In this document: positions 2,454 through 30,292 of the stretch, piece by piece
Position numbering within the stretch: position 1 is the first letter of the stretch
Layout of the letters: the number at the start of each line of letters is the position of its first letter
The notes under the pieces: model-generated
What the model was told of the DNA's origin: nothing
What the model saw: only the letters and a program-made list of their open reading frames with translations
Databases searched by the model: none
Position numbers and translations under genes: made by a program
IMG/VR virus record: IMGVR_UViG_3300003321_000583
Location: 1,256-31,729 of that record
Direction: 5' to 3' (one strand)
Length of the DNA stretch: 30,474 nucleotides
Source: a virus

Positions 2454-2777
2454 TTACAGCTGCACAGGCAGGCGGATCTGCTCGGAGCGGTAGGTCTTGC
2501 CGGACAGTACGATCGTCCACTCCACGAGCCAGGTAGTTTCGTAGGTGATCTTGGCCACCTCGGCGTCGGAGAAAGAGTACGAGACAAGCGCGGTGTTCGC
2601 GGTGTCCACGGCGCCGCTGCCGCCAGCAACGATCACTTCCTGCGTGTGCTCATCCGTGACCTTCACCGTTACCGTCGCGCCGGTCAGATCCATCCGCGTC
2701 CCGGTGCGCTGGTCACGTAGCTCGAACGTGATGGGCTCGAGGTTCGAGCCTGTCGTGCGGAGCGGGTAGATCAGCAT
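2454..2777 (-). CDS. BppU-like Ig-fold baseplate/fibre accessory protein
   Basis: 107 aa. The sequence follows the pattern of the BppU N-terminal Ig-like domain of phage baseplate upper proteins: [16 protein letters not shown], then a small-residue loop, then [20 protein letters not shown]. It overlaps the collagen-like fibre gene by 7 nt and would be made with it. It probably attaches to, or caps, the tail fibre on the virion. The match was made by eye and is fairly convincing. Confidence 0.6.
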
Positions 2778-5014
2778 GGCAGCTGCGTTGCGCTATCGAT
2801 GCAGCGCAGAAAGTCGGAGGTGAACACAGCGTTGCCAGGACTCGCGCTGTTTCCATCGCGGAGGAAGTAACCGATGTGCGTCAACGATGCGGCGTGCGTT
2901 GTGGAGCCCCAGTACTGCTTTTGCCCGCTATCTGCGAACGTCCAGAAGTGGTAGGTCGTGCCGATCTTGTGGATACCAAGGTAGCTCCAAACAAACCCGG
3001 TGCCGGAGAGTGGGTTAGGACCAGTGACCAAGAGCGTGAACGAACCACCGACTGTCTTGGCTGCCTTCAGGCCGCCTGTACTCGACGTGACGCCGTCGTA
3101 GTAGAACACGACCTGGTCGTTAGCGCTTGCGTGAGTGCTGGAGTCAGCAAAGAAGCCGATGCCGAAGTTACCGGCCGCTACGTTCGTCTCGGTGTATCTC
3201 TGAGGGAAACCAAGTCGCGACCAAATTATTCGGTTCGTTGGTACCGTCACGGTCTTCGTGTAGTAGTAGTTTTTACTGCTGCCCTCAGTACTGACCTGCA
3301 CCGCCAGATGCGATGATCGCCAGTCCGTGTGAGTCTTCAGGTGTGCCGAATCGTTGGCGGTGAGCGCTGAATACGGATCGATGCTGCCAGATGGCGTGAT
3401 CACCACGCTGTCAGACGCGTTCCACAGCTCCCAGCCGCTCGGCGGCGTCGTGCTCTCATACTCTTCATCGTCCGAGTTTGGCGATGAAGGCTTGTCGGAC
3501 AGCATGTTGCTGCCGCCCGTACTCGTGATCGTGATGTCAACGCGGCCAGCGCCAGCGTTGTCCGTCACAGTCATCGTGATGTTGCTGCCCTCGATGAAGT
3601 TGAGCGCAGCCTCGGTGCCGATCGACGTCCCAGCCTTCTTCACCGTGACGTTGTTCGCGCCGGCTGCGCCCGGTGGTCCCTGTGGACCAGGTGCGCCGTC
3701 TTGACCATCCTCACCATCCGCTCCCGGCGGCCCAGGCGGGCCGGCAGGCCCTTGGGGGCCAGTGGCGCCAGCGGCACCGGCAGCTCCCGGAGCACCAGGA
3801 GTTCCTGGTTGACCGTCTTGACCATCCTCACCATCAGCACCGGGAGGACCCGGCGGTCCGATGGGTCCCTGAGGACCAGTGGCTCCTGTGGCGCCAGCGC
3901 CAGCAGCCTCCACCTTCCGCAAATGTACGTGAGTCGAGTCCTCGACGTCGAATGCGAAGATCGTGATGGCATTCGCGCTGCTGTTCAGCGTGACGTCGCC
4001 GCTCGTCTTCGCCTTCGCTGCGAACGATAGGGTCCTCCCGCCAGCGGCGTCTTGCTTGACGATCAACCGACCGGAGTGACCGGGCGTCGTGACGACAGAG
4101 TTCGAGTAGCTGGTAGGAAAGCTGAAATCGAGCGTGCGATTGCCGCCAAGTGTCACCAGGAAGCTGTTTCCAAGCGCGGTGGTGACCGTGACCGTAGCCG
4201 CGTCGGTGAGCGTAATCAGCGGCGTCCAGAGCGTGCCTTTGACCTCAACGGGAGTGCCGGTTGAGGATTGGCCGATGCGAACGGTATGCGTCTTGTTCGC
4301 ATCCTGGCCAATGCGCACGTCTCCTGGAACGCTGGTTCCGCCGAAACCACCGGTCCCAAGCTGGCCACCTTCGATGACCGCGTTGCCAGCCTTGGAGCCG
4401 CTCGAGTCTCCGCCGTCGCCGCCGTAGAAGTACGTGTGGTTGCCGGCAACTCCGCCGACTGTTGCGCCTGGCGATGCCGCTTCTGAGCCCTTCGTGCCGG
4501 ACTGGACGGTAACGATGCCGCCAGTGCCTGGGATGCCCGAAGGAGCAGCGGGGCCGCCTTTGCCACCTTTGATGTTGAGCGCGTTGCCAGCGGCGCCGTT
4601 GGTCGACTGGTCCTTGCTCTTCAGCGTCGCCGTTGTGCCGACATGCAGCAGTACATCTGAACCGTTCGCGACGTCGATGTCCGAGCCGGTGAGCGATATC
4701 GTCGTACCGCCGTCATACGCGCTCTGAAGTGTCGTCGCGCCGTATGCGGCCCACGCAGAACCGTTGTAACGAAGGTAGCTGCTGCTAGCTTCGTTGTGGA
4801 CGACCTGGCCGTTGTTCGGCGTCTTGAACGACCACGCGCTACCATCCCAACGCGCGATGTGCGTTGCATGGCCGGACCAGGCGCCGGTGGGCGACGACGC
4901 GACGACGTACCGATCGCCAGCAGTGGGCGAGCCTGGCGGAGAGGCGATGGCAGCGCTGATCACGCTGTTCGGCCAGTCGATGTGGTCGACGTCTAAGAGC
5001 TCAATGTCTGCCAT
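2771..5014 (-). CDS. Collagen-like tail fibre protein
   Basis: 747 aa. Residues 1-100 resemble the DUF2793 fibre domain ([28 protein letters not shown]). A Gly-rich beta region follows. Residues about 373-453 are Gly-X-Y collagen repeats. Next comes a short module, [18 protein letters not shown], shared with the two genes upstream of the amidase. Residues about 500-747 form a beta-rich, aromatic C-terminal domain, probably the receptor-binding jelly roll. It overlaps its upstream neighbour by TGATG. Collagen-like phage fibres trimerise as a stalk; adsorption is the expected role. Confidence 0.85.
3696..3835 (-). repeat. Duplicated 117-bp collagen module
   Basis: A 23-bp string beginning CCGTCTTGACCATC is identical on the plus strand at 3696-3718 and 3813-3835, 117 bp (39 residues, 13 Gly-X-Y triplets) apart. 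The encoded halves both read GATGPQGP then [16 protein letters not shown], so the collagen stalk contains an internal tandem duplication. Confidence 0.75.
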
Positions 5015-10374: not shown

Positions 10375-10454
10375 AGCAGCTCACCGCACATGTGGTGATA
10401 CGCCGCTCACTGCCACCGTTTCGGCAGCGCTGCTGGTCGGCGACGATCGTAGGC
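10375..10454. promoter_or_regulatory. Divergent intergenic region with a border-like motif
   Basis: These 80 bp separate the gpW-like gene (-) from the lipoprotein (+), so promoters for both may lie here. The plus strand at 10406-10417 reads CTCACTGCCACC, resembling the border repeats of the plus-strand cassettes. Read on the minus strand it gives GGTGGCAGTGAG upstream of the gpW-like gene. No convincing -35/-10 pair is visible. Confidence 0.3.
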
Positions 10455-11222
10455 ATGAAAGAACGAGGAGCTTTGGTGTTGGTTGCCGCGCTTGCTGGCG
10501 CGTGCGGGGGTGGTGATTCGAAGCCGATGGCGGCTGCAGCTGGCGGCGGCGGCATGGAGACGCCAGCCGAGTCCGATAGCGGCGCGCTGCCCGAGCGTGA
10601 TGCAGGTGTGGACGCTCGAGCTGTGGAGCCCGAGCCCGGTGGAGCTGGTTCCGCAGCTGGTAGCGGCGGTGCCGGTGGCGCTGCCGAGCAGGCCGGAGAG
10701 ACTTCCTACGCCAACGGTGGAGCTGGTGCGCCAGCGCCAGCAGGCGGGCAGGGCGGAGCAGGCAGCGGCGGAACAGCCAGCGTTCCGACCGGAGGCCAAC
10801 CAGCACCCGCGGAGCACGTTCTTTGGTCGCAGAACTGGACTGTGGCGATCCACTCGTCCAGCGCGGCGAAAGGCTATCCGAATGCGACGATGGGCCTAGC
10901 GCTCGATGCCGGCGACTTCTGCACTTTCGGGTTCAGCGGAGCGCCTAGCGGAACTTCTCAAGATTTCCAGACTGATGGAGCCTGCATCACGCAGGCCGCG
11001 AATGTGGCGTCGGGCGTCGCCCTCATCTTCGACAGCAATGGGATGAACAGCCACGGCAGCGGCGGCCGAGCCCCACTCTCCGGCTGGACCGAAGCCGTCA
11101 CCGGGCACACCGTGACCAAGCTCCGTCGAACGCAGACCTACACCATCCAGCTGCTAGGAGCCGGTGACACCAGCTACAACTACGCGGATTTTGAAGGTAA
11201 GTGGGAGGCGATAGGTCGGTAG
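10455..11222 (+). CDS. Putative lipoprotein with Gly/Ala-rich linker
   Basis: 255 aa. Residues 1-16 are a short signal peptide ending in LAGA before Cys17, a lipobox-like site. Residues about 18-120 are low-complexity Gly, Ala, Ser and Pro (GGAGSAAGSGGAGGAAEQAG). Residues about 121-255 form a globular, probably beta-rich domain with two cysteines (DAGDFCTFGFSG, DGACITQAAN). Long linkers of this kind are typical of Myxococcota outer-membrane lipoproteins. It lies on the opposite strand inside the tail operon, as expected of an added (moron) gene. Phage-encoded lipoproteins often block superinfection; that role is only inferred. Confidence 0.65.
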   Translation: MKERGALVLVAALAGACGGGDSKPMAAAAGGGGMETPAESDSGALPERDAGVDARAVEPEPGGAGSAAGSGGAGGAAEQAGETSYANGGAGAPAPAGGQGGAGSGGTASVPTGGQPAPAEHVLWSQNWTVAIHSSSAAKGYPNATMGLALDAGDFCTFGFSGAPSGTSQDFQTDGACITQAANVASGVALIFDSNGMNSHGSGGRAPLSGWTEAVTGHTVTKLRRTQTYTIQLLGAGDTSYNYADFEGKWEAIGR

Positions 11223-13580: not shown

Positions 13581-13771
13581 GGTTCTGTATCAAACGACAC
13601 TTGAACGCCGAAGCGTTGCGTGAGCATGGCCGCGAGCGCACTGGCGCTGGCTTTGACTCTCGCGGTCCTCCACGCGTCGAAGGCTTCGGAATCGCCGTGG
13701 ACACTGCGAACCAATCGACGCCGCAAGGCGTTGCGTTGCTTCCGTAGGCGCACCGCTCGACGTCTAGTCAA
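13571..13771 (-). CDS. Small basic hypothetical protein (TTG start)
   Basis: 66 aa. The frame is open upstream through the DHH gene, but the likely start is the TTG at 13771, which overlaps the DHH stop (TTGA) and has AGG seven nt upstream. The N-terminal half is strongly basic (RRRAVRLRKQRNALRRRL); the rest is mixed. An inner GTG at 13753 is an alternative. It is coupled to the DHH gene before it and the Ala-rich gene after it. Function is unknown. Confidence 0.45.
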   Translation of the reverse strand: MTRRRAVRLRKQRNALRRRLVRSVHGDSEAFDAWRTARVKASASALAAMLTQRFGVQVSFDTEPCL

Positions 13772-14388
13772 TGCGCAACCTGCAGCCACGCAGCGAACGT
13801 GCTGTTCACCGGCAGCCTGAAGCCAGACGCTTGGGCATGGCCACCGCCGCCAAATCGCTTGGCGAACTCGGAGCAATCGGTTCCTGGCTTCGAACGCAGC
13901 GAGCAGTTCACGCTGCCGTCTTTTGTCCGCTGCCAACCAAGCGCGATTGACTCGCCGCTTTGCTCCAGGGCCGCGTTTAGAACGTCCGACACGCCAGTGT
14001 AGGTCACGTTCACGCACGCCATGCGGAGACCGGTGCCGTCTGCGTCTTCGACGATGTACAGGTTACGGAGCGCGTCTCTTACGTAGTGCTTGAGGTACAG
14101 GTGAGCGCCCTTGGCTTCTGCAAGCAGGCTGTCCATCGGCGCGCTCGACAGCGCATCCCAGGCTTCGAGCGTATGCTCGGTAAGCCGGATACGCAGCGAC
14201 AACTCCTCGGAGTTCGGCAACTTGAAGCGCCAGAGGTCGCGGTCTTCTACGTAGTCGACAACCCAAGGCCGTGGCTCAGCTGGATGAAAATGGTCCCAGG
14301 TGATGCCGGCACCGCTGCGGTTCATGTCGAATGTGCAGTAGCTCAGCCCGGCGCAATCGGCTTCGGCTGTCTTGTGATGGTCGAGCAC
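13768..14388 (-). CDS. C-terminal fragment of an NrnB-like DHH phosphoesterase
   Basis: 206 aa if it begins at the GTG at 14388, which has no visible ribosome binding site. It is in the same frame as 14407-14604, separated by one TAA. It holds the DHH motif (LDHHKTA), the DRDLW metal/substrate motif and the DHHA1 motif FGGGGHAQASGF near the end, all as in the NrnB oligoribonuclease / cAMP-cGMP phosphodiesterase family. Alone it lacks the first metal-binding motif and should be inactive. Together with the upstream piece it would be a complete enzyme of about 278 residues. Confidence 0.75.
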   Translation of the reverse strand: MLDHHKTAEADCAGLSYCTFDMNRSGAGITWDHFHPAEPRPWVVDYVEDRDLWRFKLPNSEELSLRIRLTEHTLEAWDALSSAPMDSLLAEAKGAHLYLKHYVRDALRNLYIVEDADGTGLRMACVNVTYTGVSDVLNAALEQSGESIALGWQRTKDGSVNCSLRSKPGTDCSEFAKRFGGGGHAQASGFRLPVNSTFAAWLQVAH

Positions 14389-25572: not shown

Positions 25573-26442
25573 TCACTTGGTGATGAGCTTCAACACGCCC
25601 GGGTGCGTGCTGCCGCGAGCGCGCAGGTAGCGGTACGTCGCGAAGTACGTGTGAATCGCCACCACGCTGCTGTGAGCGAGGATGTCCTGGCCGGTCAGCA
25701 CGACGGGCGCTTCCTGCATCCACAGCGCGAGCGCGGCGCGCTTGAAGATGTAGCTCTCGTACGTGTTCGGCGAGCCGCTGATGACTTTGCAGCGGTCGCT
25801 GACCATCACCGGGATGCCGTAGATCATCGCCGGGTCGCCCTTCTGCGTGGGCAGCTGCAGCAGGTTGCGGCCGGTGGTGTCCTTGAGCTTCTGCAGGTCG
25901 CGGTAGACCTTCGAGTGAACCGCGATCATCTCGATGTTTTCCTGCTGGTCGCCCCAGCCACCCGTGGTATCAGCCACAGCGTCGAAGGTGATCAGGCCGG
26001 AGCCGGTGCCGGACACGTCGTTGATGTACGTCGACGGCAACGACGCGGTCGCCGATGCAACGAGTTCCGAGTCCCAGAGGCGGCGCATGATGACGCCGAA
26101 CTGGCGAGCTGCTTCCGCGTACGGATCAGCATTCGCAGCCATGCGAGCCCATTCCGTGGTCTCGAAGGCCTTACCACCACGCTTCACCGTGGCAGTTTCC
26201 TTCGACTCGGTCAGGCCTTCCGGCGTGAGCGCTTCGCCTTCGTTCAACAGCTCAGCTTCGCCGAGCGTGCCGAAGTACGGCACAGACACGGTGTCACCAC
26301 CGCGCTTATCGCCGGGCAGAGTTTGACTGGTGACTACGGCATTGCTGCCGTACAGAACCATGATGTTGTTTGCGAACTCGCCCTGAATCGCCTCTACAAG
26401 CAATTCAGGAATGACCAGATCAGAGCGCTTAGTAAACGGCAT
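25573..26442 (-). CDS. Major capsid protein (HK97-fold type)
   Basis: 289 aa. The plan is that of short HK97-fold coat proteins: helical N-terminus (RSDLVIPELLVEAIQGEFAN), E-loop-like region (GDTVSVPYFGTLGEAELLNE), spine helix (PYAEAARQFGVIMRRLWDSE) and P/A-domain pieces (MIAVHSKVYRDLQKLKDTTG, PAMIYGIPVMVSDR). It lies directly after protease and scaffold, as expected. Hundreds of copies build the head shell. Confidence 0.85.
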   Translation of the reverse strand: MPFTKRSDLVIPELLVEAIQGEFANNIMVLYGSNAVVTSQTLPGDKRGGDTVSVPYFGTLGEAELLNEGEALTPEGLTESKETATVKRGGKAFETTEWARMAANADPYAEAARQFGVIMRRLWDSELVASATASLPSTYINDVSGTGSGLITFDAVADTTGGWGDQQENIEMIAVHSKVYRDLQKLKDTTGRNLLQLPTQKGDPAMIYGIPVMVSDRCKVISGSPNTYESYIFKRAALALWMQEAPVVLTGQDILAHSSVVAIHTYFATYRYLRARGSTHPGVLKLITK

Positions 26443-26485: not shown

Positions 26486-27154
26486 TCAGGCGCTCGCGCG
26501 CTGCGACTTTCGGCGCGGGCTTCCGCGCTCTTTCCAGTTGGCCTGCAACGCTTCGTAGAGCTCCGGCGACGACGCCTTGAGGTCGGCGAGCGCTGCAAAC
26601 GTCAACTCCTCCCACGCCTTCCCTTCGTGAGTGAGTGGCTCGTTACTGCCGCCGCCAACAGCTGCGGCTGGCGTCGGTGAGGCTTTGACCTTCGGCTGCG
26701 CGACGGCGGTCTGTACGACCACCTGATGTTGCGCCTTGGCCATGAAGGCCTCGAACATCGCGAGCGGATACTTGGACTTGCCGTTCTCGTCCTTCTCGGT
26801 CCAGAACGCTTCGAGTGCCGGAGTGAGCTTGCGGCCCTTCGGATCGGCCTTGTCGGCGGCGATGATCGACGCGCGCTTCTGCTCCTCGATCGCGTCGGCT
26901 TGCTTAGCGGCTTCCGCCGCTGCCGCTTCCAGCTGCGCCTTCAGTTCAGGGACCTGCTTCGCCGTCTCGACGATGCCGCGCACGGCGCCGAGCAGAGAGA
27001 CGTTGTCAGCGGTCGCGGTCAGGGCACGCAGCTCTGCGAGCGGCTGCTCCGCTGCGGTGGCGCGCGATTGAAGCTTGCCCAGCGACGCCATCACAGCGGC
27101 TTCATCCGAGCTGCTGTCGAGGCCCAGGGCCGTTGCGATACGTGCAATGGTCAT
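26486..27154 (-). CDS. Possible nested scaffold protein
   Basis: 222 aa if translation also starts at the internal ATG at 27154 (MTIARIATALGLD), which has GGAG nine nt upstream. The product would be the Ala/Glu/Lys-rich coiled-coil C-terminal half of the protease gene. Phage Mu (I/Z) and lambda (C/Nu3) make their scaffolds in the same in-frame way. The start is inferred. Confidence 0.5.
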   Translation of the reverse strand: MTIARIATALGLDSSSDEAAVMASLGKLQSRATAAEQPLAELRALTATADNVSLLGAVRGIVETAKQVPELKAQLEAAAAEAAKQADAIEEQKRASIIAADKADPKGRKLTPALEAFWTEKDENGKSKYPLAMFEAFMAKAQHQVVVQTAVAQPKVKASPTPAAAVGGGSNEPLTHEGKAWEELTFAALADLKASSPELYEALQANWKERGSPRRKSQRASA

Positions 27155-27808
27155 CTGTGTCGTCTCCATCTGCGGCGCACTGGTGGCTGCCGCGGTGAAC
27201 TTTTCGGGCGCGTTGCGATAGCCAAACGGCTTGAGGTCGAACGCCATCGGCGCTGCAGCTGACGGCTGCTTGCCGGTCAGCACTTCGTCAGCGAGCTTCT
27301 TCTCGACGGCTTGCGCCGGAGTGAGCCACGTCTCCGCGGCCATCATGTCGAGGCACTGCTGCTTATCCATGCCGCTGCGAGCGGCGTAGATAGACGCCAT
27401 GCCGTCGTTCAGCGTCGTCAGCGCATCGATCGCGCGCTGATGCTCCTTGGCATCGCCTTCCGTGTAGGTCGACGCCTCGTGAATCATCATCGCGCTGCCT
27501 TCGTGCATGCGGATCTTGTCCGCACCCATCGCGATGACCGAAGCTGCACTCGCCGCGAGGCCTTCGATCTCACAGGTCACCTTTGCTGGGTGAGCGGCGA
27601 GGATTGAGCGGATCGCGTTGCCTTCGAATGCCGCGCCGCCAGGCGACGACATGCGAATCAGAATCGACTTTGCGTTAGGCGCGCTGTTCAGCGCATCGCT
27701 GATGCTCTTGGCGCTGACGCCATCGCTGAACAGTCCGCCGCCGATCCGGCCGTAAATGCGCAGCTCTAGCGTGTCGCCAGAGGCAACCGCTTCGAACACT
27801 TTGGTCAT
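26486..27808 (-). CDS. ClpP-like prohead protease with C-terminal scaffold region
   Basis: 440 aa. Residues 1-180 form a ClpP-type serine protease: the RMSSPGG oxyanion loop (52-58), GLAASAASVIAMG with nucleophile Ser87, and MMIHEA with His110. The acid is less clear (near E159, AAETWLTP). Residues about 220-440 are helical and coiled-coil-rich, as in scaffolds. It would assemble the prohead and then cleave scaffold and capsid. AAGGG precedes the ATG. The capsid gene follows by 43 nt. Confidence 0.85.
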   Translation of the reverse strand: MTKVFEAVASGDTLELRIYGRIGGGLFSDGVSAKSISDALNSAPNAKSILIRMSSPGGAAFEGNAIRSILAAHPAKVTCEIEGLAASAASVIAMGADKIRMHEGSAMMIHEASTYTEGDAKEHQRAIDALTTLNDGMASIYAARSGMDKQQCLDMMAAETWLTPAQAVEKKLADEVLTGKQPSAAAPMAFDLKPFGYRNAPEKFTAAATSAPQMETTQMTIARIATALGLDSSSDEAAVMASLGKLQSRATAAEQPLAELRALTATADNVSLLGAVRGIVETAKQVPELKAQLEAAAAEAAKQADAIEEQKRASIIAADKADPKGRKLTPALEAFWTEKDENGKSKYPLAMFEAFMAKAQHQVVVQTAVAQPKVKASPTPAAAVGGGSNEPLTHEGKAWEELTFAALADLKASSPELYEALQANWKERGSPRRKSQRASA

Positions 27809-27817
27809 GAATACCCT

Positions 27818-28063
27818 TCAGGCTGAGCGTTCGATCCAGCCGAACGACATTTGAAGCTTGTCCAGCGCGGACATGAACGCGGCTCCACTGGCAGGCGTCA
27901 GAACTCCAGAGCCGTCGCTGTAAATGCGGTTGAAGCTGTACAGCTTCGCGTAAGACGGCCGGGCGTAGCTGATTGCCACTTCGCCATCGCGCAGCGTGAA
28001 CGTGGCTACTAACGTCTTGCCGCCGCCAGCGACGTCATCGACGTAGAACTTGCGCGAGCTCAT
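27818..28063 (-). CDS. Small hypothetical protein between head genes
   Basis: 81 aa, overlapping the head morphogenesis gene by ATGA. It has alternating beta strands (RKFYVDDVAGGGKTLVATFT, GEVAISYARPSY) and an amphipathic end (AAFMSALDKLQMSFGWIE). The family is not recognised. Head or protease accessory is the likely setting. Confidence 0.55.
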   Translation of the reverse strand: MSSRKFYVDDVAGGGKTLVATFTLRDGEVAISYARPSYAKLYSFNRIYSDGSGVLTPASGAAFMSALDKLQMSFGWIERSA

Positions 28064-29613
28064 TTGACGATGCGGTTGATGTTGCCGATCTGCTCAGCAG
28101 TCAGCCCGTGTGCCTTGGCCGACTTACGCAACCACGTGGCCACGTTCGCCTCGGTCTTGTCTGGATCCGAGTCAGCAAGCTTCGTGAGTTGCTTGCTGTC
28201 GTTCTTCAATGACTGCAGCCGGACCAGCACATCGCGTCGTTGTGACGCCGTTACCTGGTCGTACTTACGGAGAACACTGTCGACGTCTTCCAGCTTCAGC
28301 GCCGCGATCGTCGCCTTCGATCCGCTGTCCAGCGTGAGCGCCGACTCCATGAATTTGGCGTCGTTGACGATGAACCTGAAGCCGTTCTTAGAGAACGCGC
28401 CGCCGTTGTCGATCGCGTGGCCGGTGAATCCACCAGCGACGCCGGTCCAAAGAACGTTGCCTCCGTGCCGGTCGTTGTTCGCAGTCAGCACGTCGAGCAG
28501 GAACGTCTTGCGGTGCGACTCGTTGGCTGCGAAGCCAGCTGTGTCTGCAAGGATCTGATCTTCGAATCGCAAGCCGGCCTGAGCGCCAGGCACAAACTCC
28601 TGCATCGAGCCCGAGACTTTGCCGATCTTCCTGGCAACGGTGTCAGGCACAACTGCGCCTTCACCATGCATAAGCCGGTCGAGTTCGGCGACGGCCGCCT
28701 CACGTTGCGCGAGCGCCTTCGCTACCTTCTCGCCTTCGACGGTGCCAACAGGCTTCCAAACGACCTGTTTGGTGCCTTCGGACGTCTCCAGCGTCAGAAT
28801 CTTCGCCGGGTTCACACCCTGGTCGGACACGCGACGCTCGCTGATGACCTTCACGTCGTCCGTCATCCAGCTCGGAGCTGACGTGTCCCGCGGCTTGTCG
28901 GCGTTGTCGTTCGCAGGCTTCGCCTTCAGCTGCCCAACCTTCCGCTCGTACTCGCGGAATGCTGTTGGGTCGTACTTCGCTCGCTCCGGCTCCCAGATTT
29001 CGCCAGCTCGCAACGGTGGAGCGAGGCCCCATTCATCGCTGATTGACGGCCGCGGCTTGTCTTCGGTGATGCCGCGGCGCTGCGCCATCGATGCGGTAAG
29101 CGCGCGAACGGTCGAACGGCATCGGTGATGCAGCGGCGGAAAATGAGTCAGCCACCACGGATCGTCGTGGCGCAGGACTGTGCCGGCGCACTCCAAACAC
29201 GTAGGACTGGTGCGTCCATCCAAAACCGCATCGTAGAACTGATACGGCATGCTTGCCGTCACAGCAGGATCGCTAAGCTGGTAGTACCGCCCAGTGTTGT
29301 ACGCAGTCTGGTTCGCGTTGATGAACGCCGTATCCAGATTCGCAGCGTTCTTCGTCGTGAACGCTTTCCCGAGCTCCTTTCGAAGCTCCTTGCGCCACGC
29401 GTCGATCGGTGTTCCCTTGTCGATCGCCTTCTGCAGCGAATCGAACACGGCCTGCACGACCTTCAGCTGCTGCGTGCCAGCAATCGTGAACGACTGCCGG
29501 CGCGCCTTCGCCGACATCGCATCCCACTCGGACTTCGTGACTGGGACCCGAGCGCGAAACCACGCTGAGGCTTCAGCGAACTTATCCGGATCGGCCGGAG
29601 CGCGTTTGGCCAC
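28060..29613 (-). CDS. Mu F-like head morphogenesis protein fused to a kinase-like domain
   Basis: 517 aa from a GTG three nt after the previous stop. Residues 1-200 match phage Mu gpF-type minor head proteins, with CLECAGTVLRHDDPWWLTHF and PPLHHRCRS near 139-167. Residues about 265-430 look like a PI3/4-kinase- or HipA-like kinase: ATP lysine in QVVWKP (K287), an acidic alpha-C-like helix (REAAVAELDRLMHG), hinge MQEFVPG, catalytic NNDRHGGN (D381, N386) and metal motif DNGGAF (D402). The C-terminal 85 residues are helical. The gpF part joins portal and head; the kinase could be packaged and injected. The kinase substrate is unknown. Confidence 0.8.
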   Translation of the reverse strand: MAKRAPADPDKFAEASAWFRARVPVTKSEWDAMSAKARRQSFTIAGTQQLKVVQAVFDSLQKAIDKGTPIDAWRKELRKELGKAFTTKNAANLDTAFINANQTAYNTGRYYQLSDPAVTASMPYQFYDAVLDGRTSPTCLECAGTVLRHDDPWWLTHFPPLHHRCRSTVRALTASMAQRRGITEDKPRPSISDEWGLAPPLRAGEIWEPERAKYDPTAFREYERKVGQLKAKPANDNADKPRDTSAPSWMTDDVKVISERRVSDQGVNPAKILTLETSEGTKQVVWKPVGTVEGEKVAKALAQREAAVAELDRLMHGEGAVVPDTVARKIGKVSGSMQEFVPGAQAGLRFEDQILADTAGFAANESHRKTFLLDVLTANNDRHGGNVLWTGVAGGFTGHAIDNGGAFSKNGFRFIVNDAKFMESALTLDSGSKATIAALKLEDVDSVLRKYDQVTASQRRDVLVRLQSLKNDSKQLTKLADSDPDKTEANVATWLRKSAKAHGLTAEQIGNINRIVK

Positions 29614-29616
29614 GCG

Positions 29617-29850
29617 TCACGACTTGACGGTGATGTTACCGCTGGTACCGGTCGTATACGTCCAGCGAACACCGGTGCCAGGATACGTCGGTACGAACAT
29701 CGGATCCTGCCACCAAGGCGAGTTCGGTACGATGTACGGATCCACGGGGGTGTAAGGCACGGGTTGGAGCGATGGCGCGCACGTGCAGCGCTGCACATCA
29801 GGCGACAGCGAAGCGCCACAACGAGTGCAAATCCAACCCTCACGACTCAT
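29617..29850 (-). CDS. Small zinc-ribbon protein, third of a cluster
   Basis: 77 aa, start overlapping the previous stop (ATGA). Residues 7-30 carry CTRCGASLSPDVQRCTC, one zinc ribbon. The rest is Pro/Tyr/Thr-rich (VPYTPVDPYIVPNSPWW) and ends in beta-prone residues. It resembles the N-terminal half of its two upstream neighbours and has lost their second Cys set. The function is unknown. Confidence 0.6.
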   Translation of the reverse strand: MSREGWICTRCGASLSPDVQRCTCAPSLQPVPYTPVDPYIVPNSPWWQDPMFVPTYPGTGVRWTYTTGTSGNITVKS

Positions 29851-30074
29851 GTGATAGCCCCATTGCAGTCAGCACACTCAGAGTCGACGTTGCAGACGTA
29901 GATCGCGAAGCAGCGCGGGCAGTGCCATCGCTCATCGGCTGGCGCTACTTCCGGAGCATCCGGATAGCCACCGGGGAATGACGCTGGCAGCTGCAGCGCG
30001 CTTTGGCACGTTTGGCAGACTCCGTTGCACTCGCGCACAGTTCCGCACGGGCAGATTCCCCAGTACGTCGTCAT
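29847..30074 (-). CDS. Small double zinc-ribbon protein, second of a cluster
   Basis: 75 aa from the ATG at 30074 (ATGA overlap). It has two Cys sets: YWGICPCGTVREC with CQTC, then WHCPRCFAIYVC with CADC. It is a paralogue of the next upstream protein, sharing YWG.C.CGT.R.C, PA.FP.GYP and W.CP.C. A longer frame begins at 30146 but lies over the neighbour. Function unknown. Confidence 0.65.
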   Translation of the reverse strand: MTTYWGICPCGTVRECNGVCQTCQSALQLPASFPGGYPDAPEVAPADERWHCPRCFAIYVCNVDSECADCNGAIT

Positions 30075-30292
30075 GCTGGCGGGTTGCAGAAGCTGCAGGT
30101 AGACGAACGCGGCGAGTGGATCCGATGGCATGTCGGACATTCCCAACCCTGCAGCGGTGGCGGAGCAAGCGGAGGCCCCGGATAGCCATACGGAAAGGCC
30201 GCCGGGATGGCCGCTTGCGAGCCGCAGTTAGCGCACTGCCATGTGCACGGCCGTTGCGTGCCGCACGAACATACCCCCCAGTAGTCGTTCAC
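30071..30292 (-). CDS. Small double zinc-ribbon protein, first of a cluster
   Basis: 73 aa from a GTG preceded by GGTGA. It contains WGVCSCGTQRPCTWQCANCG and WECPTCHRIHSPRSSTCSFC, two zinc-ribbon-like Cys sets joined by a Pro-rich linker (PYGYPGPPLAPPPLQG). The next gene is its paralogue. Such cysteine knuckles bind zinc and often nucleic acid or proteins. It lies upstream of the head morphogenesis gene. Confidence 0.65.
   Translation of the reverse strand: MNDYWGVCSCGTQRPCTWQCANCGSQAAIPAAFPYGYPGPPLAPPPLQGWECPTCHRIHSPRSSTCSFCNPPA

What the first reader, a model, noticed from the sequence alone, without database searches (positions are those of the whole stretch)
28060..29613. Minor head protein fused to a PI3/4-kinase- or HipA-like kinase domain
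A Mu F-like head protein carries, after residue 265, QVVWKP, MQEFVPG, NNDRHGGN and DNGGAF in kinase order and spacing. Head proteins of this family are known to carry variable C-terminal effector domains that can enter the cell with DNA. A kinase in this place suggests an injected host-modifying enzyme.
Basis: partly seen in the sequence, partly recalled or inferred. Interest (0 to 1): 0.72.

Follow-up and report, generated by a model that had tools for sequence, protein, structure and literature searches.

The report
Phage head protein with PI3/4-kinase-like tail
A phage head protein that sits where DNA leaves the capsid carries a lipid-kinase-fold enzyme on its end, and in diverse uncultured phages that enzyme travels with a small neighbouring gene that looks like its antidote, which suggests a kinase packaged in the virus and injected into bacteria.

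Summary
Residues 56-169 are a MuF head domain. Residues ~250-517 are a PI3/4-kinase-like domain. NCBIfam TIGR03843 matches exactly across the lysine, DRH and DNG motifs. Six of seven close homologues hit Pfam PI3_PI4_kinase. The AlphaFold2 model matches PI4KII-alpha best; no HipA-family model matched. K287, D381, N386 and D402 are invariant in 34 non-redundant phage homologues.

The domain is a mobile cassette. The nearest MuF relatives (62-65% identical) stop matching at residue 225 and carry other C-termini, while neighbouring head genes stay homologous. The nearest kinase found is fused to a dissimilar head protein.

New here: the 81-aa ORF directly downstream (27818-28063) is the cassette's second half. 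An HMM of this family hits 43 ORFs among 24,958 in 310 loci, and all 43 directly follow a kinase ORF. Partner and kinase distances correlate (Mantel r = 0.75) and both are under purifying selection. I read it as a toxin/immunity-like pair.

MuF effector fusions are known. This kinase type with this partner I could not find described. Injection, activity and target are inferred, not shown.

The parts
28060..29613 (-). Gene for the 517-aa MuF minor head protein with C-terminal PI3/4-kinase-like domain
29107..29448 (-). MuF (Phage_Mu_F / SPP1 gp7-like) head domain, residues 56-169
   Evidence: PF04233 56.3 bits; TIGR01641 46.1 bits
28864..28941 (-). Linker and swap boundary, residues ~225-250: similarity to the nearest MuF relatives L171 and L011 ends here
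28063..28866 (-). PI3/4-kinase-like domain, residues 250-517 (core 266-409)
   Evidence: TIGR03843 E = 5.8e-5; AlphaFold2 pLDDT 72.8, pTM 0.78; Foldseek PI4KII-alpha E = 2.4e-6
28753..28755 (-). K287, candidate ATP-binding lysine (QVVWKP)
   Evidence: invariant in 34/34 non-redundant homologues
28585..28605 (-). MQEFVPG, candidate hinge (Q338 in 31/34)
28456..28479 (-). NNDRHGGN, candidate catalytic loop: D381 34/34, R382 34/34, H383 33/34, N386 34/34
28393..28410 (-). DNGGAF, candidate metal-binding motif: D402 34/34, F407 34/34
27818..28063 (-). 81-aa ORF whose ATG overlaps the kinase stop codon (ATGA); conserved kinase partner, candidate immunity/antidote protein
   Evidence: AlphaFold2 pLDDT 81.5; no Pfam hit, no PDB fold match
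26486..27808 (-). Clp-type head maturation protease (context; conserved across the cassette swap)
25573..26442 (-). Major head protein (context; conserved across the cassette swap)

Best explanation
The protein is a modular phage effector. Its N-terminal MuF domain fixes a few copies at the portal inside the head, and its C-terminal PI3/4-kinase-like domain is carried in the virion and enters the cell with the DNA. There it phosphorylates a host target, more likely a protein than a phosphoinositide. The 81-aa protein made from the overlapping downstream gene binds the kinase and keeps it off in the cell that makes the virions; it is not packaged, so the kinase acts only after delivery. Kinase and partner form one cassette that moves between phages and onto dissimilar head proteins. 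Shown here: the MuF domain, kinase-type sequence and fold, kept catalytic residues, C-terminal swapping, and a conserved, co-diverging partner under purifying selection. Inferred: packaging, injection, enzymatic activity, target, and that the partner is an inhibitor. My separate estimates: active PI3/4-fold kinase 0.9; cassette with a specific partner 0.9; virion-delivered effector 0.65; partner is an immunity/antidote protein 0.6.
For: MuF domain. Kinase: TIGR03843 over the motif-bearing stretch; PI3_PI4_kinase in 6 of 7 members and above cut-off in P0007, L279, L291, L292 and L305; PDB fold match to PI4KII-alpha, E = 2.4e-6, probability 1.00. Catalytic K, D, N, D invariant in 34 non-redundant homologues. 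Cassette swap: window against L171 and L011 is 62-65% identical to residue 225 with no C-terminal match, while the protease stays 48-56% and the capsid protein about 46% identical; window against L239 shows no N-terminal match but 39% in the kinase. Close MuF relatives carry other effector types: PBECR2 nuclease (MMP7, Riverbug) and an ATLF-type peptidase domain (Mx4). Partner: HMM hits at E <= 1 are 43 of 24,958 ORFs in 310 loci, all 43 directly after a kinase ORF, several from loci not used to build the model; kinase/partner distance correlation r = 0.75 over 17 pairs, 0 of 20,000 permutations as high; rough dN/dS 0.04-0.09 for the kinase and 0.06-0.14 for the partner. The partner also follows kinases that are not fused to MuF (L242, L303), and tandem kinases each have their own. 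Precedent for MuF effector fusions followed by small immunity-like ORFs: PMC5576092, PMC5512222.
Against: No virion proteomics or activity data exist for these uncultured phages. MuF toxins in the literature are confined to temperate phages (PMC5576092), but here an integrase over cut-off was found in only 2 of 17 kinase-bearing contigs (fragments, so weak), and no prophage copy was found in about 1,100 proteobacterial genomes sampled. In some loci the kinase is not on a recognisable head protein (L242, L299, L301, L303), so virion packaging cannot be universal. The model's active-site segment has low confidence (pLDDT 50s) and TM-scores are low (about 0.4). The partner has no recognisable fold, so inhibition is a guess from gene order.
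Confidence: 0.55

Rival explanations
1. The kinase acts inside the producing cell during assembly: it phosphorylates phage head proteins (or itself) to time packaging or maturation, and the small protein is a co-factor or substrate of that step.
For: Kinase and partner lie inside the head operon between MuF and the protease; partner is translationally coupled.
Against: Close relatives with the same head genes do without both (L171, L011), so the activity is dispensable for assembly of this head type. The same place is taken by nuclease or peptidase domains in other relatives. The cassette also occurs outside head proteins.
Confidence: 0.15
2. The small partner is not an inhibitor but an activator, chaperone/loader or substrate of an injected kinase.
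For: Gene order and co-divergence show a specific partner but not the sign of its effect. Several of these contigs may be from virulent phages, where long-term immunity is not needed.
Against: One small downstream gene per kinase, also per tandem kinase, and one case where the partner is encoded convergently on the other strand yet kept adjacent (L284), fits the usual layout of toxin/immunity pairs.
Confidence: 0.25
3. A toxin-antitoxin-like or superinfection-exclusion module expressed in the infected or lysogenic cell, merely parked on the MuF gene; the virion location is incidental.
For: Two-gene toxin-first layout; free-standing kinase-partner pairs exist (L242, L299, L303).
Against: The cassette repeatedly sits at the C-terminus of different minor head proteins (MuF PF04233, Phage_min_cap2 PF06152), which argues that being on a head protein is selected. 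No antitoxin-like DNA-binding domain was recognised in the partner.
Confidence: 0.12
4. A decayed or non-catalytic kinase fold used as a structural or binding module.
For: The window copy itself falls below every Pfam kinase threshold.
Against: K287, D381, N386 and D402 are invariant in 34 of 34 and H383 in 33 of 34 non-redundant homologues; low dN/dS.
Confidence: 0.05

Closest known systems
MuF polymorphic toxins (Jamet et al. 2017, PMC5576092)
   Same: MuF head domain with a swappable C-terminal effector and a small ORF directly downstream.
   Different: The text of that paper contains no occurrence of 'kinase'; it names nuclease, peptidase, ADP-ribosyltransferase and RelA-type domains. [quoted passage not shown]
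Polyvalent proteins of phages with kinase or zeta-toxin domains (Iyer et al. 2017, PMC5512222)
   Same: Virion-associated multidomain proteins, including MuF fusions, with predicted kinase effectors.
   Different: Their kinases are a Ser/Thr/Tyr-kinase lineage that lost the C-terminal subdomain, and zeta-toxin kinases; not PI3/4-kinase type, and no dedicated small partner family is described in the passages read.
TIGR03843 / SCO1664 family of Actinomycetota
   Same: Closest named sequence family of the kinase domain; stand-alone relatives in 138 of 397 sampled genomes.
   Different: Stand-alone genes, usually one per genome; the window scores 22.5 bits against a cut-off of 172.4, so it is a distant relative and not a member.
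Type II PI 4-kinases (PI4KII-alpha/beta) and PF00454
   Same: Best fold match; similar DR...N loop and AIDNGLAF motif in P0007.
   Different: 14% identity; no lipid substrate shown; eukaryotic enzymes.
HipA and CtkA kinases
   Same: Bacterial atypical kinases of a related fold; CtkA is among the structural matches.
   Different: No HipA family model matched; the partner has no Pfam match at all, HipB-like or other.

Membership tests
MuF / SPP1 gp7-like minor head proteins | PF04233 domain above cut-off | tested here: met
   56.3 bits against 29.6, residues 56-169
MuF / SPP1 gp7-like minor head proteins | Gene placed among portal, head protease and major capsid genes | tested here: met
   Followed by ClpP-type protease and capsid gene; in relative L171 an ORF that looks like a DUF935-type portal overlaps the MuF start (by eye). 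The window's contig ends before any portal gene.
MuF polymorphic toxins | Variable C-terminal effector domain on a conserved MuF part | tested here: met
   Swap against L171, L011, MMP7 and Mx4
MuF polymorphic toxins | Small ORF of under 150 aa directly downstream, absent from relatives lacking the toxin domain | tested here: met
MuF polymorphic toxins | Toxicity and neutralisation by the downstream protein | not testable with these tools
   needs expression experiments
MuF polymorphic toxins | Carried by a temperate phage | tested here: inconclusive
   The 31.7-kb contig looks incomplete; integrase over cut-off in 2 of 17 related contigs
PI3/PI4-kinase-like superfamily | Profile match to PF00454 above cut-off | tested here: inconclusive
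   Window: none. Homologues: 6 of 7 match, P0007 above cut-off
PI3/PI4-kinase-like superfamily | Catalytic Lys, DRHxxN loop, D of the DNG/DFG-equivalent motif | tested here: met
   K287, D381, N386, D402 in 34 of 34
PI3/PI4-kinase-like superfamily | Two-lobed kinase fold | tested here: met
   AlphaFold2 pTM 0.78; PI4KII-alpha E = 2.4e-6, probability 1.00, but TM about 0.4 and low confidence near the active site
PI3/PI4-kinase-like superfamily | Phosphotransfer to lipid or protein | not testable with these tools
   needs assay
TIGR03843 (SCO1664 family) | Score above the curated cut-off of 172.4 bits | tested here: not met
   22.5 bits
HipA toxins | HipA-type domains and a HipB-like antitoxin | tested here: not met
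   No HipA family among Pfam or NCBIfam hits of the kinase; partner has no Pfam match

The most novel reading that the evidence does not exclude
A widespread but undescribed class of virion-delivered PI3/4-kinase-type effectors in uncultured tailed phages, each encoded with a member of a new small immunity protein family, and exchanged as a two-gene cassette between dissimilar head proteins.
Probability: 0.5. Interest if true: 0.78.

Novelty: new variant of a known kind. Interest (0 to 1): 0.62.

Why it matters
Effectors that ride inside phage heads are known for few enzyme types, and the kinases proposed so far are of other lineages. A conserved kinase with a dedicated partner gives a direct test of whether MuF C-termini are injected toxins: the pair can be expressed alone, mutated at K287, D381 or D402, and neutralised by the partner. 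It also names a small protein family with no Pfam model that flags such kinases in metagenomes.

Tried and rejected
1) HipA reading: dropped, no family or top-50 fold match. 2) Single-sequence searches of the full protein or kinase domain in IMG/VR, and of the kinase domain in named phages, found no kinase relative; only motif and alignment searches did. 3) PDB sequence search of the window protein gave only weak SepF matches, E = 0.16, treated as chance. 4) First genome scan with the kinase alignment confirmed no relative; Actinomycetota relatives appeared only with the profile search. 5) Partner against named phages: best E = 0.6 in DLP_3, neighbourhood shows no kinase, treated as chance. 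6) Fold of the partner: only immunoglobulin-like noise, E > 0.2. 7) PADLOC: no defence-system match. 8) The first bridging set (L002, L003) aligns well only around the DRH and DNG motifs, so it was left out of the folding alignment. 9) Bacillus phage Jayan kinase is a stand-alone gene not near head genes.

Full report
What is there. The window is bases 1256-31729 of a 31,729-base IMG/VR virus record. The genes at its right end run on the minus strand in the order MuF (28060-29613), an 81-aa ORF (27818-28063), a ClpP-type head protease (26486-27808) and the major head protein (25573-26442). The record ends upstream of MuF before any portal gene. Further genes on the same strand include a tail sheath, tape measure and baseplate wedge, so this is a contractile-tailed phage.

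The observation. The 517-aa protein has a MuF domain at residues 56-169 (56.3 bits against a cut-off of 29.6). Pfam finds no kinase in this copy, but NCBIfam TIGR03843 matches residues 266-409 (E = 5.8e-5 for the C-terminal part), the stretch from just before the lysine motif to the end of the DNG motif.

Homologues make the kinase firm. Searches of IMG/VR by motif and by alignment found further fusions. P0007 (L041, L042) matches the window protein over residues 14-450 at 30% identity, scores TIGR03843 at 1.1e-15 and PI3_PI4_kinase at 30.4 bits, above cut-off. Six of seven members of the close family hit PI3_PI4_kinase and none hit HipA. Across 34 non-redundant homologues K287, D381, R382, N386, D402 and F407 never vary, and H383 varies once. 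The loci of the largest scan were selected by two patterns, around EAA..LD and AID.G..F, so conservation at D402, G404 and F407 is partly by selection; K287, D381, H383 and N386 were not in those patterns.

Fold. AlphaFold2 on residues 250-517 with seven sequences gave mean pLDDT 72.8 and pTM 0.78, with N-terminal strands and a helical C-lobe. Foldseek against PDB: PI4KII-alpha E = 2.4e-6, then Vps34, PI4KIII-beta, PI4KII-beta and the Helicobacter kinase CtkA. TM-scores are low (about 0.4) and the segment around the catalytic loop is poorly predicted, so the fold class is supported but the active-site geometry is not. By sequence the nearest PDB entry of P0007 is also PI4KII-alpha, sharing AIDNGLAFPL (E = 0.09, weak). 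In predicted viral structures the top hit is a phage protein already labelled as PI3/4-kinase, and one hit is labelled head morphogenesis, so automatic annotation has touched such proteins.

A swappable cassette. Against the two nearest MuF relatives, L171 and L011, identity is 62-65% up to residue 225 and then stops; their C-termini have no match to the window's kinase, and Pfam recognises no domain with confidence in either. The protease (48-56%) and capsid protein (about 46%) next door stay homologous. Against L239 the reverse holds: no similarity in the head part, 39% in the kinase. Other close MuF relatives end in a PBECR2 nuclease (Meiothermus phage MMP7, Thermus phage Riverbug) or an ATLF-type peptidase domain (Myxococcus phage Mx4). 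Kinases are fused to MuF proteins of several types and in L305 to Phage_min_cap2, 335 bits.

The partner gene. The 81-aa ORF overlaps the kinase stop codon (ATGA). P0007 is followed by an 82-aa ORF in the same arrangement, and the two are homologous (phmmer E = 8e-6 in a one-to-one comparison; 0 of 5,000 shuffles score as high). L171 and L011 lack it. In the loci from the last scan most kinase ORFs are followed by such an ORF, starting from 47 bases before to 42 bases after the kinase end. A profile from 13 of them, run against 24,958 ORFs of 310 loci, hits 43 at E <= 1; 42 are directly downstream of a kinase on the same strand and the 43rd (L284) is directly downstream but on the opposite strand. 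Eighteen of 34 non-redundant kinases have a partner at E <= 1e-5 and about six more at E 0.01-0.7 in the same position. The non-kinase MuF loci in the set gave no hit. Kinase and partner distances correlate (Mantel r = 0.75, 17 pairs, 0 of 20,000 permutations; shared ancestry of the phages contributes and was not separated). dN/dS is 0.04-0.09 for the kinase and 0.06-0.14 for the partner (dS is near or above saturation in most comparisons, so rough). The partner is predicted as a small alpha+beta protein (pLDDT 81.5) with no Pfam or PDB match.

Distribution. Apart from a weak match to a stand-alone kinase in two Bacillus phages (Jayan, PS1) and one marginal match to an unannotated faecal phage record, none of the 50,697 named phage records matched the kinase; full-length fusions match named phages mainly in the head part. 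Relatives at E <= 1e-8 occur in 138 of 397 genomes drawn from the phylum of an Actinomycetota locus, against 0 of 399 and 1 of 379 in those of a proteobacterial and a myxococcal locus, and at E <= 1e-10 in 0 of 367 and 0 of 350 genomes of two proteobacterial classes with a second alignment. Group names here come from the titles of the loci used as centres. An integrase over cut-off was found in 2 of 17 kinase-bearing contigs. Records close to the window's own genome may be hidden from these searches.

How it probably works. From established knowledge of SPP1 gp7 and MuF proteins (PMC5576092), one or two copies sit with the portal. The proposal is that the kinase domain is packaged with them, leaves with the DNA and phosphorylates a host target, while the partner keeps it inactive in the producing cell. 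Protein substrates seem likelier than lipids because most bacteria lack phosphoinositides (general knowledge). Packaging, injection, target and inhibition are inferred.

Literature. MuF toxins and polyvalent proteins are described (PMC5576092, PMC5512222, PMC3482391), with kinases only of Ser/Thr/Tyr-type, zeta-toxin or lantibiotic-synthetase type in the passages read. Nine searches of the held library found no report of a MuF-PI3/4-kinase fusion or of this partner. Most subscription papers and preprints are not held, so novelty is provisional.

Noticed in passing
window 10392-11222 (+): 276-aa ORF on the strand opposite to the structural genes with a lipobox-like start and a long Gly/Ala linker, resembling myxobacterial lipoproteins; no Pfam match. 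Possible cargo gene and host hint.
   Followed up: partly
window 13768-14388 (-): 206-aa ORF matches only DHHA1 (34 bits); the N-terminal DHH half is not in the same ORF, so it may be truncated or frameshifted.
   Followed up: no
window 29847-30146 (-) and L267 2373-3048 (-): Several small Cys-rich, zinc-ribbon-like ORFs lie where a portal gene would be expected upstream of MuF.
   Followed up: no
window 2771-5014 (-): 747-aa tail-fibre-like protein with DUF2793 and two collagen-type repeat stretches.
   Followed up: no
L284 4843-5106 (- strand): The kinase partner gene is convergent, on the opposite strand, yet still directly adjacent to the kinase.
   Followed up: partly
L003, L008, L009: Large-phage ORFs with an N-terminal NUDIX domain followed by one or three PI3/4-kinase-like domains.
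   Followed up: partly
L172 3974-6352 (+): MuF protein followed by another kinase-like stretch (NWDAAGAGLDNLL...RVDNGGAF) and, by eye, an ADP-ribosyltransferase-like end.
   Followed up: no
L273 2228-4900 and L277 2198-4801 (+): MuF-kinase fusions with a further sub-threshold domain: ADPrib_exo_Tox in L273, Methyltransf_23 in L277.
   Followed up: no
L245 1252-2577 (-): Genomic ORF (genome from the phylum of a Myxococcales locus) with a C-terminal PI3/4-kinase-like domain and a different downstream ORF, resembling a secreted polymorphic toxin by eye.
   Followed up: no
L242 and L243: Near relatives in which the same kinase is a separate gene (L242) or fused to the head protein (L243), each with the same partner.
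   Followed up: partly
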